The notes beneath the pieces are model-generated. The model saw only the letters and a program-made list of their open reading frames with translations. It had not been told where the DNA came from and searched no databases. Of a stretch of DNA of 64,000 nucleotides, positions 51,794 through 60,635 are shown piece after piece; positions within the stretch are counted from its first letter, which is position 1; each line of letters begins with the position of its first letter. The position numbers and the translations under genes are program-made. This DNA is from an uncultured Flavobacteriaceae bacterium (lineage in GTDB: Bacteria > Bacteroidota > Bacteroidia > Flavobacteriales > Flavobacteriaceae). The stretch lies in contig CALSPF010000003.1 of assembly GCA_943788165.1 (NCBI GenBank), positions 124,001 through 188,000 of the forward strand, read 5' to 3'.

Positions 51794-51867
51794 GGCCTCG
51801 TAGCATAACTGAATAGTGCACTTGATTACGGCTCAAGAGGTTAGAGGTTTGAATCCTCTCGAGGTCA
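51794..51867 (+). tRNA. tRNA-Arg (ACG)
   Basis: Folds as a complete cloverleaf: acceptor GGCCTCG with CGAGGTC (one G-U), D stem GCAT/GTGC, anticodon stem CTTGA/TCAAG with loop TTACGGC (anticodon ACG, read as ICG for CGN arginine codons), variable AGGTT, T stem AGAGG/CCTCT with loop TTTGAAT, discriminator A at 51867. CCA is not encoded. A promoter precedes and a terminator follows. The AT-rich accessory island begins directly after it. Confidence 0.95.
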
Positions 51868-53102: not shown

Positions 53103-53495
53103 CTAATTACTAGGACAAGTTCCCCAGATAGGTTTGTTGGTATTTATAAGTGCAGAATTATCAGCAAAATAAGAAGGTTCAGATGTAATATTTGTAACAC
53201 ACCAACCAGTCAAATCCTGATTGAAAGCAGTAGCAAAATCAAACATTCTTCTCATATCAGTCACACTAGAGGTATTCCAACTACCTATGTCTTGATTGAA
53301 TGCTGTTGCACCATCGTTGTGAAGTCCGCCTACTTCAGGACCATAATATGGGTTTGTATACTTAGATTGACCCTGGAAAAGTAATCCTACAGAAATACCT
53401 TTAAGTGCTTTTTTTGTTGTAGTTCGGCGGTTCCATTCTTGAGAAAATGAAAAGAAAGAACAAAATAGTAGTAGAATTAAAAGCGTATTCCTCAA
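53103..53495 (-). CDS. Short BspA-like (DUF285) surface protein
   Basis: A 130-residue exported protein: signal peptide ending FFSFSQ, a 45-residue middle without known motif, then two DUF285/BspA-type leucine-rich units (FNQDIGSWNTSSVTDMRRMF, ATAFNQDLTGWCV) and the ending NTNKPIWGTCPSN. The last 70 residues closely match residues 954-1024 of the neighbouring 1130-residue protein, so it looks like a deletion derivative or duplicate of it. Full BspA-like proteins have many more repeats. Confidence 0.7.
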   Translation of the reverse strand: MRNTLLILLLFCSFFSFSQEWNRRTTTKKALKGISVGLLFQGQSKYTNPYYGPEVGGLHNDGATAFNQDIGSWNTSSVTDMRRMFDFATAFNQDLTGWCVTNITSEPSYFADNSALINTNKPIWGTCPSN

Positions 53496-53566: not shown

Positions 53567-56500
53567 TTATTGAACTGTAATTGTTCCATACATACCATCG
53601 TGAGCTGAACATTGGTAGTAATACGTTCCAGCAGTTGTAGGTGTCCAATTTACTACTCCGCTTGTAGCTCCATTATTAGTCACATTAGAAACTTGATTAT
53701 CTGTTCCTGTCCCTTGAACTGTTTTAATATAGAACGGATGACTAGCAGCATCTACAATAAAGTTGACCTCATCACCAACATTAATAGTTATTGAAGGGTC
53801 GTTACCTGATACTGCTCCATTTCTGTCAGAACCTGATAGGGTGTAATTAGAATTAGAAGATGCAGTAACATTTATATTGTAATATGGGCAAGTTCCCCAG
53901 ACAGGTTTATTAGCATTTGATAAAGAAGAATTAAACGAAAAGTTTGTGGGCTCTGTAGTAATGTTAGAGACACACCAACCTGTTAAATCCTGATTAAATG
54001 AAGATGCGTTTTCAAACAATCTATCCATATTAGTCACATTAGAAGTATCCCAAAAACCAATGTCAGAGTTAAAGTTTGCTTTACCAGAAAATAAATTTTG
54101 CATACTATTAACCAACGTTGTGCATAAATTGATATTACCATTATTGGCTTGACCCCCTATGGTTGAGTTGTTAACCGCAGTATAGGTCACTCCATTAATA
54201 ACATCAGTATCTCCAACTGTGGCATTTGGACACTTACAAGTTCCGTTATCAAAGTAAATATTACCAGAATTAGAAACAGCAGCATTCACAATAACTGTTC
54301 TTTGAACTTCTGTTGAAGCGTTTCCTGCGGCATCAGAAACATAGTAATACATCATATATGTTCCTGCTGTGGATGTATTAACTGTTCCAGTGGTAGTTAT
54401 AGAAGAAGTTAAATTTCCATCAACATCATCAGTAGCTGTTGCACCAGGGTCTGTAAAGGTATCTCCAACTGTTAAGTTAATGGTAGAAGAACCTGTTAAT
54501 GTAATCACAGGAGGTGTGGTGTCTGCAGTTGAACTTGATGTTGTGGAGGTACTTGATGTAGAACCTGCCACCACAGTAATTATACCGCCTAATGTAAAGG
54601 ATGAAGTAGAGCTGTACCAATTAGCAACATAAGAATAAGCTCCTGTTTGTCCAGTTGGTGTACCGCTTATAATGGCTGTATTATTGCTGAAGTTCATAGT
54701 GACTCCCGTAGGAAGTCCAATTACCTCTTCTTGTAAGTTTTCTTGACAAGAAGAATTAACAGAAAAAATTATATCACTTATGGCATAGGTTAGTGTTACT
54801 GTTTGAGACTGTCCTCCCCCAGCGTTTTGTGCAGAAATTGTACAGTTAGATGAATTTGTTGCTGCACTTACAATAACCGTTCTTTGAACTAATGTTGCAG
54901 CATTACCAGCAGCATCAGAAACACTATACGATATTGTGTATGTTCCTGTGCTGGAAGTATTAACCGTTCCAGAGGTAGTTATAGCTGATGTAATATTTCC
55001 GTCTACATTATCTGATGCTGTTGCTCCCGGGTCTGTAAAGGTATCGCCAACTGTAAGATTGATTGATGCTTCTCCAGTTAATATAATTATAGGAGCTGTA
55101 TTGTCTGGAGGAGTCTTAACTGCTATGGTTCTAGTTACTGATGCAGTATTATTTCCAGTATCAGAAACACTGTAAACCAAAGTATATGTTCCTACTGTTG
55201 AGGTATCAACTGTTCCAGTAGTAATTATTGAAGAGGTAAGGTCTCCGTCTACTTCATCTGTTGCAATACATCCATCTTCTATGTATGTGTCTCCCACAAG
55301 GAGAGTAATGGTTGAAGAGCCTGTTAAAGTAATTGTTGGTGGTAAATCTAAACTTACAATTAATGTTCTGATTACTGAAGCAGTATTACCTGCAGTATCT
55401 GAAACACTGTAGATTAAAGTGTATGAACCGGTAGTAGAGGTGTCAATAGTTCCTGACGATGTTATTGAAGAGGTTAAATCTCCGTCTACATTATCTGAAG
55501 CCGTTGCTCCTGGGTCTGTCCAATTATCACCCATAGTAATTAGTAGAGTTGAAGGACCATTTAATGTTATCACAGGAGGTGTGGTGTCAGGGATTGAACT
55601 AACAATTACAGTTCTTGTTACCGATACAAAGTTATTTCCACTATCTGAAACAGAATATACTAATGTATAGGTTCCTGTATTAGAAACATCAACTGTTCCT
55701 GAAGTTGTTATAGAAGCTGTAATATTTCCATCCTCTTGGTCTGTTGCAACACATCCATCTTCTGTGTAGGTCTCTCCCACTAGAAGGTTAACAATTGAAG
55801 AGCCTGTTAGGGTGATTGTTGGTGGTAAATCTAAATTAACAACAACAACTCTCGTTACTGAAGTAATATTACCTGCCGCATCTGAAACTGAATACTCAAT
55901 TGTATATGTGCCGGTAGTAGAGGTATCAACAGTTCCTGACGATGTTATAGAAGCGGTTAGGTCTCCATCTATACTATCTTCTGCAATAGCTCCTGGGTCT
56001 GTAAAGGTTTCTCCAACGGTAAGATTAATGGTAGAAGAGCCTATGAGGGATATAACTGGAGGTAAGGATGTGTCTGTTGCCTCATCGTACGTTTCGTCTT
56101 TATCTCCGTCAGCATCTTCTGTACAACCACTCGATAACTCAATAGAGAAGCTAATAAAGCCATTGGTAAGCACAAGGTTTGTTATCGTTCCAAATGGTGA
56201 TTGTGATTGTGTTAGGCTTATTGTAGTATTTGAGTCTATGTTAAATTGTCCTGTAACTGTTGTTGTTCCCGTAACGATTGTAAACGAACCATCTGTTCTA
56301 AATATAATTTCTGAAACGCTACATTCATCATTTGACTGCTTAAGGCTTGATGCTAAAGTTCTTCTAATCTTCCATTTACCTACTCCTGCAAACACTCCGT
56401 CCTGTAAAACATTACTTATCTGCTCTTCAAATGTCGCAGTAACTGACTTTGTTCCATCTATAGCAACATCAATTTCATTCGTAGTAGCCGTAGAGGAACC

Positions 56501-56959
56501 CGACCAGCTGTTAAACACCCATTCTGACTCTGGTGTAGCAGTCAAGCGAACAACATCTCCTGAATTATACTCTTCTGATGTTTTATCTGGGTCAGTAACC
56601 TCTTTGGTTACACTACCCTGACCAACCACACCAACATTAAGTGTGTATTGTATTCTACTAAAAGTAGCAGTAATCGTTTTGTTACCCGTCATTGTAACGG
56701 TTAGTGGATTATCTGTACCAGAAGCATCTCCTGACCAACCCGTAAACTCAAACCCAGTTGAAGGTGCAGCCGTTATTGTAACACTAGAGTTTTCGTTGTA
56801 AGTTCCACTAGAAGGGTCAACACTTCCTCCTTCAGAGGCTGAAACAGATAAAGTGTATGTTATGGTTGGCTCATCTGGTAAAGGAGCATCTTTGGAGCAA
56901 GAATTTATAACTAGAAATAAAGAAAATATAAGTAGTGAACTTCTGAAAAGGCTTTTCAT
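53567..56959 (-). CDS. Giant repeat lipoprotein with DUF5011, BspA and cupredoxin domains
   Basis: An 1130-residue surface lipoprotein. Lipobox VINSC (C21). Two InlB-type beta repeats at 34-100 (TGWSGDASG) and 105-177. A lipocalin-like segment at 185-290. Five tandem DUF5011 Ig-like repeats at 301-698 and a sixth at 817-892 (each LTVGDTFTDPGATASD-like, ending YSVSDAAGN). A BspA/DUF285 stretch at 945-1024. A C-terminal cupredoxin domain at 1028-1130 with ligand candidates H1074, C1117, H1120 and M1123 (SHPFYI and QCSAHDGM). No T9SS sorting domain. Probably a cell-surface adhesin or copper-binding electron carrier; the mix of domains is unusual. Confidence 0.82.
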   Translation of the reverse strand: MKSLFRSSLLIFSLFLVINSCSKDAPLPDEPTITYTLSVSASEGGSVDPSSGTYNENSSVTITAAPSTGFEFTGWSGDASGTDNPLTVTMTGNKTITATFSRIQYTLNVGVVGQGSVTKEVTDPDKTSEEYNSGDVVRLTATPESEWVFNSWSGSSTATTNEIDVAIDGTKSVTATFEEQISNVLQDGVFAGVGKWKIRRTLASSLKQSNDECSVSEIIFRTDGSFTIVTGTTTVTGQFNIDSNTTISLTQSQSPFGTITNLVLTNGFISFSIELSSGCTEDADGDKDETYDEATDTSLPPVISLIGSSTINLTVGETFTDPGAIAEDSIDGDLTASITSSGTVDTSTTGTYTIEYSVSDAAGNITSVTRVVVVNLDLPPTITLTGSSIVNLLVGETYTEDGCVATDQEDGNITASITTSGTVDVSNTGTYTLVYSVSDSGNNFVSVTRTVIVSSIPDTTPPVITLNGPSTLLITMGDNWTDPGATASDNVDGDLTSSITSSGTIDTSTTGSYTLIYSVSDTAGNTASVIRTLIVSLDLPPTITLTGSSTITLLVGDTYIEDGCIATDEVDGDLTSSIITTGTVDTSTVGTYTLVYSVSDTGNNTASVTRTIAVKTPPDNTAPIIILTGEASINLTVGDTFTDPGATASDNVDGNITSAITTSGTVNTSSTGTYTISYSVSDAAGNAATLVQRTVIVSAATNSSNCTISAQNAGGGQSQTVTLTYAISDIIFSVNSSCQENLQEEVIGLPTGVTMNFSNNTAIISGTPTGQTGAYSYVANWYSSTSSFTLGGIITVVAGSTSSTSTTSSSTADTTPPVITLTGSSTINLTVGDTFTDPGATATDDVDGNLTSSITTTGTVNTSTAGTYMMYYYVSDAAGNASTEVQRTVIVNAAVSNSGNIYFDNGTCKCPNATVGDTDVINGVTYTAVNNSTIGGQANNGNINLCTTLVNSMQNLFSGKANFNSDIGFWDTSNVTNMDRLFENASSFNQDLTGWCVSNITTEPTNFSFNSSLSNANKPVWGTCPYYNINVTASSNSNYTLSGSDRNGAVSGNDPSITINVGDEVNFIVDAASHPFYIKTVQGTGTDNQVSNVTNNGATSGVVNWTPTTAGTYYYQCSAHDGMYGTITVQ
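54284..56059 (-). repeat. Tandem DUF5011-coding repeats, about 240 bp each
   Basis: Five adjacent units (54866-56059) and one separate unit (54284-54511). Two subtypes alternate: FTDPGATASD and YTEDGCVATD, in order A-B-A-B-A, then A. Near-identical DNA within a subtype points to duplication in pairs and makes copy-number change by recombination likely. Confidence 0.8.
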
Positions 56960-57004: not shown

Positions 57005-57181
57005 CTAATCAATAAACAGCGGTAAATCCTCATAAGGTTTATCTGACGTTTCTCTACTTATTAGCTTAGGCAAAATGTATTGTAAGGCTATCTGAAACAT
57101 CTTAATTCTTTGATTAGCATCTAGCTCATTTAGGTCTAAAGAGCCTATTAAATCGTCTAATAAATCTTGTAGTTTGCTTTT
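57005..57181 (-). pseudogene. MPxPKG-family small gene, 5'-truncated copy
   Basis: Reads KSKLQDLLDDLIGSLDLNEL, then DANQRIKMFQIALQYILPKL and ends PYEDLPLFID before a stop at 57005. It matches the gene at 58480-58764 from SKLQ onward but has lost the first 15 residues; the junction near 57182 abuts TTGTACCTTAG. Function unknown; small proteins of this kind occur in mobile regions. Confidence 0.6.
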
Positions 57182-57215
57182 TGTACCTTAGTTTTTTAAT
57201 CTAAAAACATTTATT

Positions 57216-58479: not shown

Positions 58480-58764
58480 TTATTGTTTCTCTGTAGGACA
58501 AACATCACTTGTCCATCCACCTGTTTCTTCATCACGCTTGATAACCTCAACATCTATAATGAGAGATTTATCTTCACTTGACTCTTCTGTCGTGTGTTTG
58601 AGTCTAGGCAGTAAGTAATGTTATCCTATTTGTAGCATCTTAATCCGTTGATTAGCGTCTAAATCATTTAAGTCTAAAGAGTCTATTAAATCATCTAATA
58701 AGCCTTGTAGTTTGCTTCTTACTTCTGATGTTACTTTATTGGGAGAGCCCTTAGGTCTTGGCAT
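58480..58764 (-). pseudogene. MPxPKG-family small gene with in-frame stop
   Basis: The fullest copy of three: MPRPKGSPNKVTSEVRSKLQ, then DDLIDSLDLNDLDANQRIKM, a TAA stop at 58621-58623, and an in-frame continuation HYLLPRLKHTTEESSEDKSL to a final stop at 58480. Without the stop it would be 94 residues. It starts 5 bases after the stop of a ribbon-helix-helix gene fragment. Function unknown. Confidence 0.6.
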
Positions 58765-58850: not shown

Positions 58851-59930
58851 TTATTCAGTTTTAAATTCTCTCAAAACAGGTAAGGCATTATTATCAAAGT
58901 CAAACAATGCTTGATTTTCCCAAGGGGAAGCATCTGCAGATTGATTTCCTTTCCAAGCAATTAATTCGGCACCCCAATAACAAAATCCTATCCCATTTTT
59001 AACTTCATTCGTTAATTTTTTAATTTGTTTTATGAATTTTTTCTGTCCTTCACTTGTTGCTGGATATTCAGGTAAAATTAGTTGCTCCTTGAAACCTAAT
59101 ATGTTATTTGTCCAATCATTCCATTCAAGTGTAAAAGGATAAGCTGTTTCGGCAATCAATACATTTTTATTATAGGTTTGGCTTAATTGTGCCATATTAT
59201 TTGTTAGATTTTCTAGGGATTTTCCGTGCCATATTGGATAATATGATAAACCTATAATATCATAATCTATTGTATTTACTTGATTAAAAAACCAATCAGA
59301 GCCTTCAATACCAGCAAAATGTAAAATTATTTCTGTATCCTTTGTATTTGTTCGTACTGCTAAAATAGCAGTATTCGTTAGTTCTTTATATTGCTGAAAG
59401 TTATTTGAAATATGTCCATAAGGATGAAGAAATCCAGAATTAATTTCATTACCAATCTGAATATAATCAGGTTGTAATTTGCTTACAATTTTTTCAGTGT
59501 ATTTATACACACTATCTTTTAAAGCAGTAAAACTAATTCCTTGCCATTGGATTGGAGTCTCTTGATGTCCTGGGTCAGTCCAAGTATCTGAATAATGAAG
59601 TGTTAACCAAGTTTTAAATCCATTAGTTTTTAGGGTTTGGGAAAACTTTTTGACTTCGTCAAATCCTGAGTGTTCATTAATTGGGTTTACCCAAAGTCTC
59701 AACCTAATAGTATTTATTCCATTATCTTTTAAAATTGTTAAGAAATCATTTTGATTTCCTTCCAAATCATAGAAAATAGGATTTGAATTTGATATCTCAG
59801 GATAGCTTGAGATGTCAACAGCAGAAATAAATGAAGAATTTTCATTCTCTAGAATGGGTTCATTTATGTCATCTCTTTTACAAGAAATGAAAATCAGAAA
59901 AGTCATTAATACTTGTAATGTTCTATTCAT
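58851..59930 (-). CDS. GH53 endo-beta-1,4-galactanase lipoprotein
   Basis: A 359-residue secreted glycoside hydrolase of family 53, which cuts beta-1,4-galactan of pectin side chains. Lipobox FISC puts the acyl-Cys at 17. Seen: INTIRLRLWVNP, TWLTLHYSDTWTDPGHQ, acid/base E162 in IQIGNEINSG and nucleophile E261 in LIAETAYPF. No SusC/SusD or other carbohydrate genes are nearby, so it is an orphan in the island, possibly acquired alone. Confidence 0.88.
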   Translation of the reverse strand: MNRTLQVLMTFLIFISCKRDDINEPILENENSSFISAVDISSYPEISNSNPIFYDLEGNQNDFLTILKDNGINTIRLRLWVNPINEHSGFDEVKKFSQTLKTNGFKTWLTLHYSDTWTDPGHQETPIQWQGISFTALKDSVYKYTEKIVSKLQPDYIQIGNEINSGFLHPYGHISNNFQQYKELTNTAILAVRTNTKDTEIILHFAGIEGSDWFFNQVNTIDYDIIGLSYYPIWHGKSLENLTNNMAQLSQTYNKNVLIAETAYPFTLEWNDWTNNILGFKEQLILPEYPATSEGQKKFIKQIKKLTNEVKNGIGFCYWGAELIAWKGNQSADASPWENQALFDFDNNALPVLREFKTE

Positions 59931-60345: not shown

Positions 60346-60468
60346 TTAGAGTATTTTATTAACTAAAAGTATGTTAAGGTACTCATTCAAAACCATCCCT
60401 TTTTGATGTGCAATTTGAATCAGTTCTTGTTTTAACTTTTTGGATATTCTCAATGTTATATTTTCCAT
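60346..60468 (-). CDS. Ribbon-helix-helix protein, 40 residues
   Basis: MENITLRISKKLKQELIQIA and a second helix to LLVNKIL: the beta strand-helix-helix pattern of CopG/Arc-type DNA-binding proteins. Its ATG shares a base with the stop of the upstream RHH gene (TGATG), so both are translated together. No toxin or relaxase gene lies next to it. The last 18 codons are duplicated at 58770. Confidence 0.6.
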   Translation of the reverse strand: MENITLRISKKLKQELIQIAHQKGMVLNEYLNILLVNKIL

Positions 60469-60635
60469 CACAGTTCTTTTTTTAATGCATTAAGAATAAT
60501 ACTTGCTCTTGCCATACTGTATCTAGCAAAACCTGATAAGGTTAAACCATTCTCTTTAGCAACTTGTTTAAACTTTACTATCTCTGGTTCTGTAAACCTT
60601 ACTTGTATATGCTTATCTCTATTTATACTTCTCAT
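60468..60635 (-). CDS. Ribbon-helix-helix / MobC-like protein, 55 residues
   Basis: MRSINRDKHIQVRFTEPEIV, then KFKQVAKENGLTLSGFARYS. The RFTEPE...SGFARYSM pattern is like plasmid mobilisation proteins of the MobC/RHH type, though shorter than typical MobC. It is first in a two-gene unit that reads away from the structured non-coding region at 60.8 kb. A relaxase is not present in the window. Confidence 0.55.
   Translation of the reverse strand: MRSINRDKHIQVRFTEPEIVKFKQVAKENGLTLSGFARYSMARASIILNALKKEL

What the first reader, a model, noticed from the sequence alone, without database searches (positions are those of the whole stretch)
53567..56959. Surface lipoprotein combining Ig-like repeats, BspA repeats and a cupredoxin domain
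The C-terminal 100 residues carry the H...C-x2-H-x2-M copper pattern (H1074, C1117, H1120, M1123), where one would expect a sorting or adhesion domain. Adhesin-like DUF5011 repeats would hold a copper centre away from the membrane. This could be an extracellular electron-transfer or copper-capture protein, a combination I have not seen described.
Basis: partly seen in the sequence, partly recalled or inferred. Interest (0 to 1): 0.55.

Follow-up and report, generated by a model that had tools for sequence, protein, structure and literature searches.

The report
Copper-protein tip on marine surface lipoprotein
A marine flavobacterium carries a large, probably surface-attached protein that ends in a small copper-protein domain, and the same domain, with its copper-holding residues kept, also sits in the baseplate and tail proteins of viruses that infect ocean cyanobacteria; what it does there is untested.

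Summary
ORF 53567-56959 (-) encodes a 1130-aa predicted lipoprotein with two InlB B-repeats, six Ig-like domains, one DUF285 (BspA-like) stretch and a C-terminal cupredoxin (PF00127, 23.1 bits, cut-off 21.2). H1074, C1117, H1120 and M1123 are as stated; the two histidines are the only ones in the protein. The domain model is confident (pLDDT 98.3) and matches type-1 copper proteins (VIA Z 11.4, 10.9). All four ligands are present in 137 of 142 distinct relatives.

The architecture is not unique: the domain is a portable module of (mostly marine) Bacteroidota, C-terminal in 50 of 52 frames with a known end, and also occurs as a small stand-alone lipoprotein. It recurs in 228 of 50,697 phage records (223 named as cyanobacterial phages), often in gp9-type baseplate connectors (42 of 60 sampled rows); 13 of 13 of this type examined keep all ligands.

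I read it as an extracellular copper-bearing display or attachment module rather than a respiratory electron carrier: shared with virion parts, 2 of 436 neighbour ORFs with a haem motif, loop beside the exposed His variable. Copper binding, redox activity and surface exposure are untested; the export signal is a half match and the Ig stalk did not model. New variant of a known kind.

The parts
53567..56959 (-). Gene for the 1130-aa modular lipoprotein
56897..56959 (-). Signal peptide and lipobox VINS-C21 (residues 1-21); +2 to +6 is S-K-D-A-P, half of the optimal export signal C-X-K-(D/E)2-X
   Evidence: read by eye in the sequence; export signal from passages of PMC5080379
56651..56857 (-). 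Divergent InlB B-repeat 1, PF18998 (residues 35-103)
56432..56650 (-). Divergent InlB B-repeat 2 (about residues 104-176; limits read by eye)
   Evidence: (two stretches)
55847..56062 (-). Ig-like domain 1, PF16403 (about residues 300-371)
   Evidence: six stretches; limits by motif
55610..55825 (-). Ig-like domain 2 (about 379-450)
55364..55579 (-). Ig-like domain 3 (about 461-532)
55127..55342 (-). Ig-like domain 4 (about 540-611)
54881..55096 (-). Ig-like domain 5 (about 622-693)
54299..54514 (-). Ig-like domain 6 (about 816-887)
53921..54121 (-). DUF285 / BspA-like stretch (residues 947-1013)
53570..53884 (-). C-terminal cupredoxin domain (residues 1026-1130)
53738..53740 (-). Predicted copper ligand H1074
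53609..53611 (-). Predicted copper ligand C1117
53600..53602 (-). Predicted copper ligand H1120
53591..53593 (-). Predicted axial copper ligand M1123

Best explanation
The gene makes an outer-membrane lipoprotein, lipidated at Cys21, that carries InlB, Ig-like and DUF285 modules and ends in a type-1 copper cupredoxin domain. The domain belongs to a distinct, portable family (signature x-H-P ... Y-x-C-x2-H-x2-M) that Bacteroidota, mostly marine by their record titles, attach to the ends of secreted lipoproteins and that cyanophages build into baseplate and tail proteins. Shown: domain order, predicted fold, near-invariance of the ligand set, C-terminal placement, and sharing with phage virion proteins. 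Inferred: that it binds copper in vivo, that it is exposed on the cell surface, and that its shared job is an extracellular one, as a copper-stabilised or copper-using attachment/display module, rather than electron delivery to a respiratory chain.
For: Cupredoxin: PF00127 over cut-off; profile match to solved blue copper proteins; model pLDDT 98.3 with Cys at the end of one strand and His/Met in the loop before the last; VIA Z 11.4 (rmsd 1.8, 89 aligned) to the cupredoxin part of Hyphomicrobium nitrite reductase and 10.9 (rmsd 2.0, 92 aligned) to a rusticyanin mutant. Ligands: 137 of 142 distinct near-complete domains have H, C, H and M, and 40 of 42 of those that match none of the peptide patterns used to fetch loci (checked). 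Portable C-terminal module: 50 of 52 bacterial frames with a known end; behind DUF285, InlB, Ig or weak LRR parts or alone as 139-151 aa lipoproteins (L122, L127, L150, L155 twice, L157). Lipid anchor: lipobox by a simple pattern in 24 of 42 frames with an upstream stop; reading that list, K at +3 with D/E at +4 in 14 of the 24. Sharing with virions: 228 of 50,697 phage records; 42 of the 60 spread rows annotated baseplate wedge tail fibre connector; all 13 gp9-type proteins examined (12 fetched for this from the spread rows, plus S-RIM12; 12 distinct sequences, 11 named genera) keep all four ligands; phrog_677; S8 peptidase plus cupredoxin; predicted phage proteins at TM 0.98, 0.94, 0.93 and two connectors at 0.85 and 0.81. 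Against electron transport: 2 of 436 neighbour ORFs with CxxCH.
Against: Four-ligand conservation including the axial Met is what a redox protein would show, so electron transfer is not excluded. Foldseek TM-scores to solved structures are only moderate (about 0.5 to 0.6 for the query). The gp9-type phage copies are distant (33-38% identity). The export signal of this protein is a half match (CSKDA), so a periplasmic location is possible. The Ig stalk modelled badly (full-length pLDDT 52.7, pTM 0.30), so 'displayed at the tip' is inference from domain order. Some copies are N-terminal or internal (L123, L124 run off their locus and are not in the 52; L145, L146). No background rate was measured for CxxCH in neighbours, and surface proteins are often encoded alone.
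Confidence: 0.55

Rival explanations
1. Extracellular electron-transfer protein: the type-1 copper site takes or gives electrons at the cell surface (to soluble metal complexes, phenolics, superoxide or another surface redox protein).
For: Nearest solved relatives in sequence and fold are electron carriers or redox domains: amicyanin, plastocyanin, rusticyanin, nitrite reductase. All four ligands including Met are kept in 137 of 142. Stand-alone lipoprotein forms look like small membrane-anchored blue copper proteins.
Against: 2 of 436 neighbouring ORFs carry CxxCH (no background measured). Loop residues beside the exposed His vary (A, L, V, F at 94; N, G, S, A at 96), so no single docking face is kept. 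The same domain is part of phage baseplate and tail proteins, where a respiratory partner is hard to imagine.
Confidence: 0.25
2. Copper capture or buffering: the domain binds copper at the surface to scavenge it or to protect the cell.
For: Complete ligand set; predicted lipid anchor.
Against: One copper per 1130 residues is a poor sink (inference). No copper-transport gene was recognised by reading the ORFs around the gene, of which only a few were scanned against Pfam. Does not explain phage use.
Confidence: 0.1
3. The fold is kept for stability only: the site is ancestral and the metal, if any, is incidental (or zinc).
For: Used as one module among many beta domains; one viral paralogue lost three of four ligands (DSRM, L057) and still matches the profile.
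Against: The four ligands, with P50 and Y90, are the only invariant columns of the 80-row alignment, though L143 and L159, which lack one ligand each, had been left out of it. 40 of 42 pattern-free domains keep all four, as do all 13 gp9-type phage proteins examined. Copies with a lost ligand include a short 97-aa frame (L143, Met to Lys) and a 37-codon remnant (L003, His to Leu).
Confidence: 0.1

Closest known systems
Plastocyanin/azurin family (Pfam PF00127 Copper-bind)
   Same: Fold, ligand order, HMM match over the curated cut-off.
   Different: Not a free small electron carrier: one module at the end of an 1130-aa predicted lipoprotein. Several relatives of the domain are missed by PF00127 (no hit at E 0.01 for L141, L148, L153, L155, L165, L166, L170, nor for the second copy of the own genome, L174).
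Amicyanin and rusticyanin
   Same: Amicyanin: same short ligand loop C-x2-H-x2-M (alignment). Rusticyanin: G-H-S-F around the first His and TAGTYYY-x-C before the loop; fold Z 10.9.
   Different: Amicyanin equivalog score 19.4 against a cut-off of 110.2; rusticyanin has a longer loop between Cys, His and Met. Here the first His is followed by Pro in 99% of distinct rows.
Cyanomyovirus gp9-type baseplate wedge tail fibre connector (phrog_677), tail fibres and S8 peptidases of cyanophages
   Same: Same domain with the same ligands: 6 of 6 domains in four reference phages and 13 of 13 gp9-type proteins, S-RIM12 being in both counts; at or near the C-terminus in gp9 and in some S8 peptidases.
   Different: N-terminal partners are virion parts (the S-RIM12 protein matches T4 gp10 and gp9 at its N-terminus). 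Identity to the window domain is 33-58% in the listed places.
Bacteroidota surface proteins with PF16403 Ig-like, PF18998 InlB and DUF285 modules
   Same: All three module types present over cut-off.
   Different: Copper domain added at the C-terminus; related frames without it end in WGTCPSN-stop (53103-53495 in the window; L003).

Membership tests
PF00127 Copper-bind (plastocyanin/azurin) | Profile score over the gathering cut-off | tested here: met
   23.1 against 21.2 bits; 27.5 bits in the genome search
PF00127 Copper-bind (plastocyanin/azurin) | Type-1 ligand set His, Cys, His, Met in order | tested here: met
   H1074, C1117, H1120, M1123; 137 of 142 relatives
PF00127 Copper-bind (plastocyanin/azurin) | Cupredoxin fold | tested here: met
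   predicted model pLDDT 98.3, Foldseek prob 1.00 with TM about 0.5-0.6, VIA Z 11.4
PF00127 Copper-bind (plastocyanin/azurin) | Binds copper, blue absorbance, redox active | not testable with these tools
   needs the expressed protein
Amicyanin (TIGR02657, equivalog) | Score over the curated cut-off | tested here: not met
   19.4 against 110.2
Plastocyanin (TIGR02656, equivalog) | Score over the curated cut-off | tested here: not met
   16.2 against 87.85
Rusticyanin | Long ligand loop as in the solved chains | tested here: not met
   loop here is C-x2-H-x2-M; rusticyanin reads CQIPGHAATGM
PF16403 Bact_surface_Ig-like | Score over cut-off, repeated | tested here: met
   426.3 bits, six stretches
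DUF285 / BspA-like | Score over cut-off | tested here: met
   60.5 against 25 bits, one stretch
Bacteroidota surface-exposed lipoprotein | Signal peptide with lipobox Cys | tested here: met
   read by eye in the sequence, VINS-C21; no signal-peptide program was run
Bacteroidota surface-exposed lipoprotein | Export signal C-X-K-(D/E)2-X as optimal in Capnocytophaga (PMC5080379, passages) | tested here: inconclusive
   C-S-K-D-A-P has K at +3 and D at +4 but A at +5
phrog_677 phage gp9-type connector | N-terminal baseplate part | tested here: not met
   scanning the window domain alone matched profile positions 309-408 of 412; the rest of the window protein is InlB, Ig-like and DUF285 by Pfam

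The most novel reading that the evidence does not exclude
The domain is a copper-dependent attachment module of the open ocean: a type-1 copper site, elsewhere an electron carrier, has been turned into a binding or maturation device used at the ends of bacterial adhesins and in the baseplate and tail fibres of cyanophages. Copper availability in seawater would then tune both bacterial attachment and phage infectivity.
Probability: 0.25. Interest if true: 0.85.

Novelty: new variant of a known kind. Interest (0 to 1): 0.6.

Why it matters
Type-1 copper proteins are textbook electron carriers (general knowledge). Here the full ligand set is kept in a module used by Bacteroidota on predicted surface lipoproteins and by T4-like cyanophages in baseplate and tail proteins. 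If the copper is real in virions, a metal site in a phage infection machine becomes directly testable with existing lab phages, and trace copper would be tied to attachment in the surface ocean. Even if the copper is only structural, the family is under-annotated: PF00127 misses several members, and a good part of the best-matching phage copies are labelled 'hypothetical protein'.

Tried and rejected
Rejected: (1) chance motif: excluded by fold, profile and conservation. (2) Uniqueness of the architecture: excluded. (3) Link to a redox gene cluster: 2 of 436 neighbour ORFs (ATG start, 100 aa or more) in 62 loci have CxxCH; both proteins are 340-346 aa, and the one in L122 lies about 4 kb from a stand-alone copy; no background was measured. 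(4) Recent phage-bacterium swap: the tree (42 virus rows, 49 rows labelled bacterial, which include the Euryarchaeota-titled L160) needs 5 label changes against about 30 when shuffled, so exchange looks old and rare; few columns, bootstrap not settled. (5) Rod-like spacing of the copper site: the full-length model is poor (pLDDT 52.7, pTM 0.30, Ig region mostly under 50), so neither shown nor excluded. (6) Ligand geometry could not be measured, because the tool gives no coordinates.

Limits: loci were fetched by peptide patterns, some of which include C1117 or H1074 (one search also H1120), which biases towards keeping these; hence the pattern-free count, 40 of 42. The profile used for that count was built from alignment A3, from which I had left out L143, L159, L162 and L163 beforehand; the first two lack one ligand each and are counted among the 142. 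Rows left out before the 142: 27 partial, 49 identical, one from L173; loci were not included. In one search the window's own domain was listed under 'phage refs' (locus L180); one search shows it, so there are one window and six reference-phage domains. The five exceptions: two end right after the Cys (L087, L057), one viral paralogue without the site (L057, DSRM), L143 (HCHK) and L159 (HCYM). One search, an earlier BLAST-based count, gave 132 of 134. The 13 gp9-type proteins are my pick for variety from the 60 spread rows plus S-RIM12; one (S-B64) is annotated tail pin, and S-P4 and Syn30 are identical in the domain. In one search, 63 loci were found with two patterns, so taxonomic breadth is a lower bound: 60 titles are Bacteroidota, three are not (L160, L167, L171); L160 groups with phage sequences and may be a virus contig. 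The lipobox count rests on my own simple pattern and misses some (such as L113 and L141, by eye).

Literature: ten searches, seen as listings with the start of each abstract (one search showed 6 of 7 papers, 10 of 12, 10 of 41), except passages of PMC5080379 and PMC3037559. In some searches no listed title or abstract start describes a cupredoxin in a phage tail or in a flavobacterial adhesin; the texts behind the listings were not read. PMC3037559 has plastocyanin twice, both as PetE, and 'copper' not at all. The library lacks most subscription journals.
Full report
What is there. The ORF at 53567-56959 (minus) encodes 1130 aa starting MKSLFRSSLLIFSLFLVINSC, with a lipobox cysteine at 21 by eye. 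Pfam gives two InlB B-repeats (PF18998), six Ig-like stretches (PF16403), one DUF285 stretch at 947-1013 and Copper-bind PF00127 at 1051-1130, 23.1 bits against a cut-off of 21.2. NCBIfam gives only sub-threshold amicyanin, plastocyanin and pseudoazurin matches in the same place. The stated ligands are right, and H1074 and H1120 are the only two histidines in the whole protein; in the 13 relatives aligned with it, some of them incomplete, the total was 2 to 8.

Is the copper domain real? The 105-residue domain matches solved plastocyanins at E 6.9e-4, and an 80-sequence profile matches nitrite reductase, amicyanin, pseudoazurin and plastocyanin at 3.8e-6 and weaker. The AlphaFold model has mean pLDDT 98.3 and pTM 0.90; residue 92 (C1117) ends strand 86-92, H1120 and M1123 lie in the loop before strand 99-104, and H1074 lies between strands 40-45 and 51-54. 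Foldseek ranks rusticyanin, AcoP, pseudoazurin, plastocyanin and amicyanin high, probability 1.00, though with moderate TM-scores of about 0.5 to 0.6. VIA-align gives Z 11.4 (rmsd 1.8, 89 aligned) to the cupredoxin part of Hyphomicrobium nitrite reductase and 10.9 (rmsd 2.0, 92 aligned) to a rusticyanin mutant. A shared fold shows no function.

Are the ligands kept? In the 80-row alignment the only invariant columns are H49, P50, Y90, C92, H95 and M98, that is the four ligands plus two; two rows with a changed ligand had been left out of it. Over all loci held at that point, 137 of 142 distinct near-complete domains have H, C, H and M: the window, 28 of 28 from family genomes, 6 of 6 from four reference phages, 56 of 59 from viral contigs and 46 of 48 from genome contigs. 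Two of the five exceptions end right after the Cys. Because many loci were fetched by peptide patterns that contain some of these residues, I counted those matching no pattern: 40 of 42.

Who has it? In the family sample 35 of 299 genomes (own genome included) match at E 1e-5 or better, and in the phylum sample, with the profile, 22 of 395. The genome-contig scan returned 63 loci, 60 with Bacteroidota titles, mostly Flavobacteriaceae MAGs and single cells that look marine by their names. In 50 of 52 bacterial frames with a known end the domain is C-terminal; L123 and L124, where it is N-terminal, run off their loci and are not in that count. Partners vary: DUF285, InlB, Ig-like and weak LRR parts, NHL repeats in L123, and in a more distant branch CHRD or DUF7282. 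Stand-alone lipoproteins of 139-151 aa exist, such as L122 (CSDDDS) and L155 (CSNDDD).

The virus side. 228 of 50,697 phage records match, 223 of them named Synechococcus, Prochlorococcus or cyanophage; of 60 rows spread over the ranking, 42 are annotated baseplate wedge tail fibre connector. These are distant copies (33-38% identity), so I fetched twelve, of varied genera, and with S-RIM12 examined 13: all 13 (12 distinct sequences) keep H, C, H and M. A weaker cupredoxin-like stretch with the same four residues also lies in the neighbouring S-RIM12 baseplate wedge subunit. PHROG profiles phrog_677 (tail, connector), phrog_15006 (tail fibre), phrog_9158 and phrog_27200 match the window domain. 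The S-RIM12 connector's N-terminus matches T4 gp10 (2.4e-6) and gp9 (9.4e-4), and the P-SSM2 tail spike gene carries two copies. Several viral proteins are S8 peptidases that carry this domain, at the C-terminus in some. The window's model matches predicted phage proteins at TM 0.98 (57% identity), 0.94 and 0.93, and connectors of S-H34 and S-RIM14 at 0.85 and 0.81. The tree separates bacterial from viral copies with about five switches, so sharing looks old.

Where on the cell? After Cys21 comes S-K-D-A-P. Published work on Capnocytophaga defines the optimal surface signal as C-X-K-(D/E)2-X (PMC5080379, passages), so this protein is half a match. Of 24 relatives with a lipobox by a simple pattern, 9 have two or more acidic residues in +2 to +6 and, reading that list, 14 have K at +3 with D/E at +4. 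Surface exposure is likely, not shown. A sister-genome lipoprotein with a related N-terminus carries a GDSL lipase instead, which fits an anchor with exchangeable payloads.

How it probably works. Copper binding follows from ligands and fold (inferred, strong). Electron transport is the usual job of such sites, but few redox neighbours were seen (2 of 436 ORFs with CxxCH; no background), residues around the exposed His vary, and the same domain serves in virion parts. I therefore favour an extracellular display or attachment module that needs copper for its fold or for its binding, at 0.55, with electron transfer at 0.25. The full-length model could not show the stalk (pLDDT 52.7).

Setting. 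The gene lies about 1.7 kb from a tRNA (51794-51867) and two genes that read as glutamine synthetases (my reading, no profile run). In the sister genome, within about 12 kb of the matching gene, there are a DUF285-like 207-aa frame ending in WGTCP, a cupredoxin frame of 97 aa whose Met ligand is Lys, the lipase lipoprotein and a DUF5681 ORF, while two long relatives lie in tandem on another contig. The own genome has one further intact copy of the domain (L002, L174) and one remnant next to an IS240-type transposase. This looks like a rearrangement hot spot where modules are gained and lost (inference).

Novelty. The domain belongs to a known family by fold and ligands; the use is a new variant. 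I found no description of it in the searches named under Tried and rejected, seen as listings within an incomplete library.

Noticed in passing
window 53103-53495 (-): A 130-aa ORF with a signal-like start and a DUF285 stretch ends in WGTCPSN-stop, where the neighbouring large gene reads WGTCPYYN into the cupredoxin: the same module with and without the copper domain, side by side.
   Followed up: partly
L003 and L175 (own genome, C2 near 651123): A 419-aa frame with DUF285 ends in WGTCPSN-stop; a 37-codon cupredoxin remnant with the second His changed to Leu follows, then an IS240-type transposase.
   Followed up: partly
L209 5681-5988 and 10387-11310: In the sister genome, within about 12 kb of the matching glutamine-synthetase-like gene, lie a short cupredoxin frame that lost its Met ligand and a lipoprotein with an N-terminus like the window gene's but a GDSL lipase as payload.
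   Followed up: partly
window 57067-57182 and 58605-58720: Two copies, 82% identical, of a stretch that in one place reads as a short frame (MPRPKGSPNK...), upstream of the gene; no profile was run on it. The sister genome has a similar stretch at L209 14193-14409 and a DUF5681 ORF about 1.2 kb from it.
   Followed up: partly
window 60346-60635 (-): Two short frames that look like ribbon-helix-helix or MobC-type proteins (recalled look, no profile run), in a stretch of about 1.4 kb without ORFs of 80 aa or more.
   Followed up: no
window 58851-59930 (-): A glycosyl hydrolase of family GH53 (galactanase type, recalled) with a lipoprotein-like start, 293.9 bits.
   Followed up: no
L165, L166, L170: A distant branch of the same cupredoxin is fused to CHRD (L165 over cut-off, L170 below it) or DUF7282 (L166) domains.
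   Followed up: partly
L057 6165-7103: A viral paralogue of the domain that has lost three of four ligands (DSRM) while still matching the profile.
   Followed up: no
L178 3328-6315 (S-RIM12 baseplate wedge subunit): The protein next to the gp9-type connector holds its own weaker cupredoxin-like stretch with H, C, H and M in place.
   Followed up: no
BFVD hits A0A481YVH3, A0A481Z6J5, A0A7D3QVK4: Cupredoxin-like predicted folds also appear in giant viruses (Marseillevirus, Pithovirus, Fadolivirus), named beta-sandwich protein or blue type 1 copper protein.
   Followed up: no
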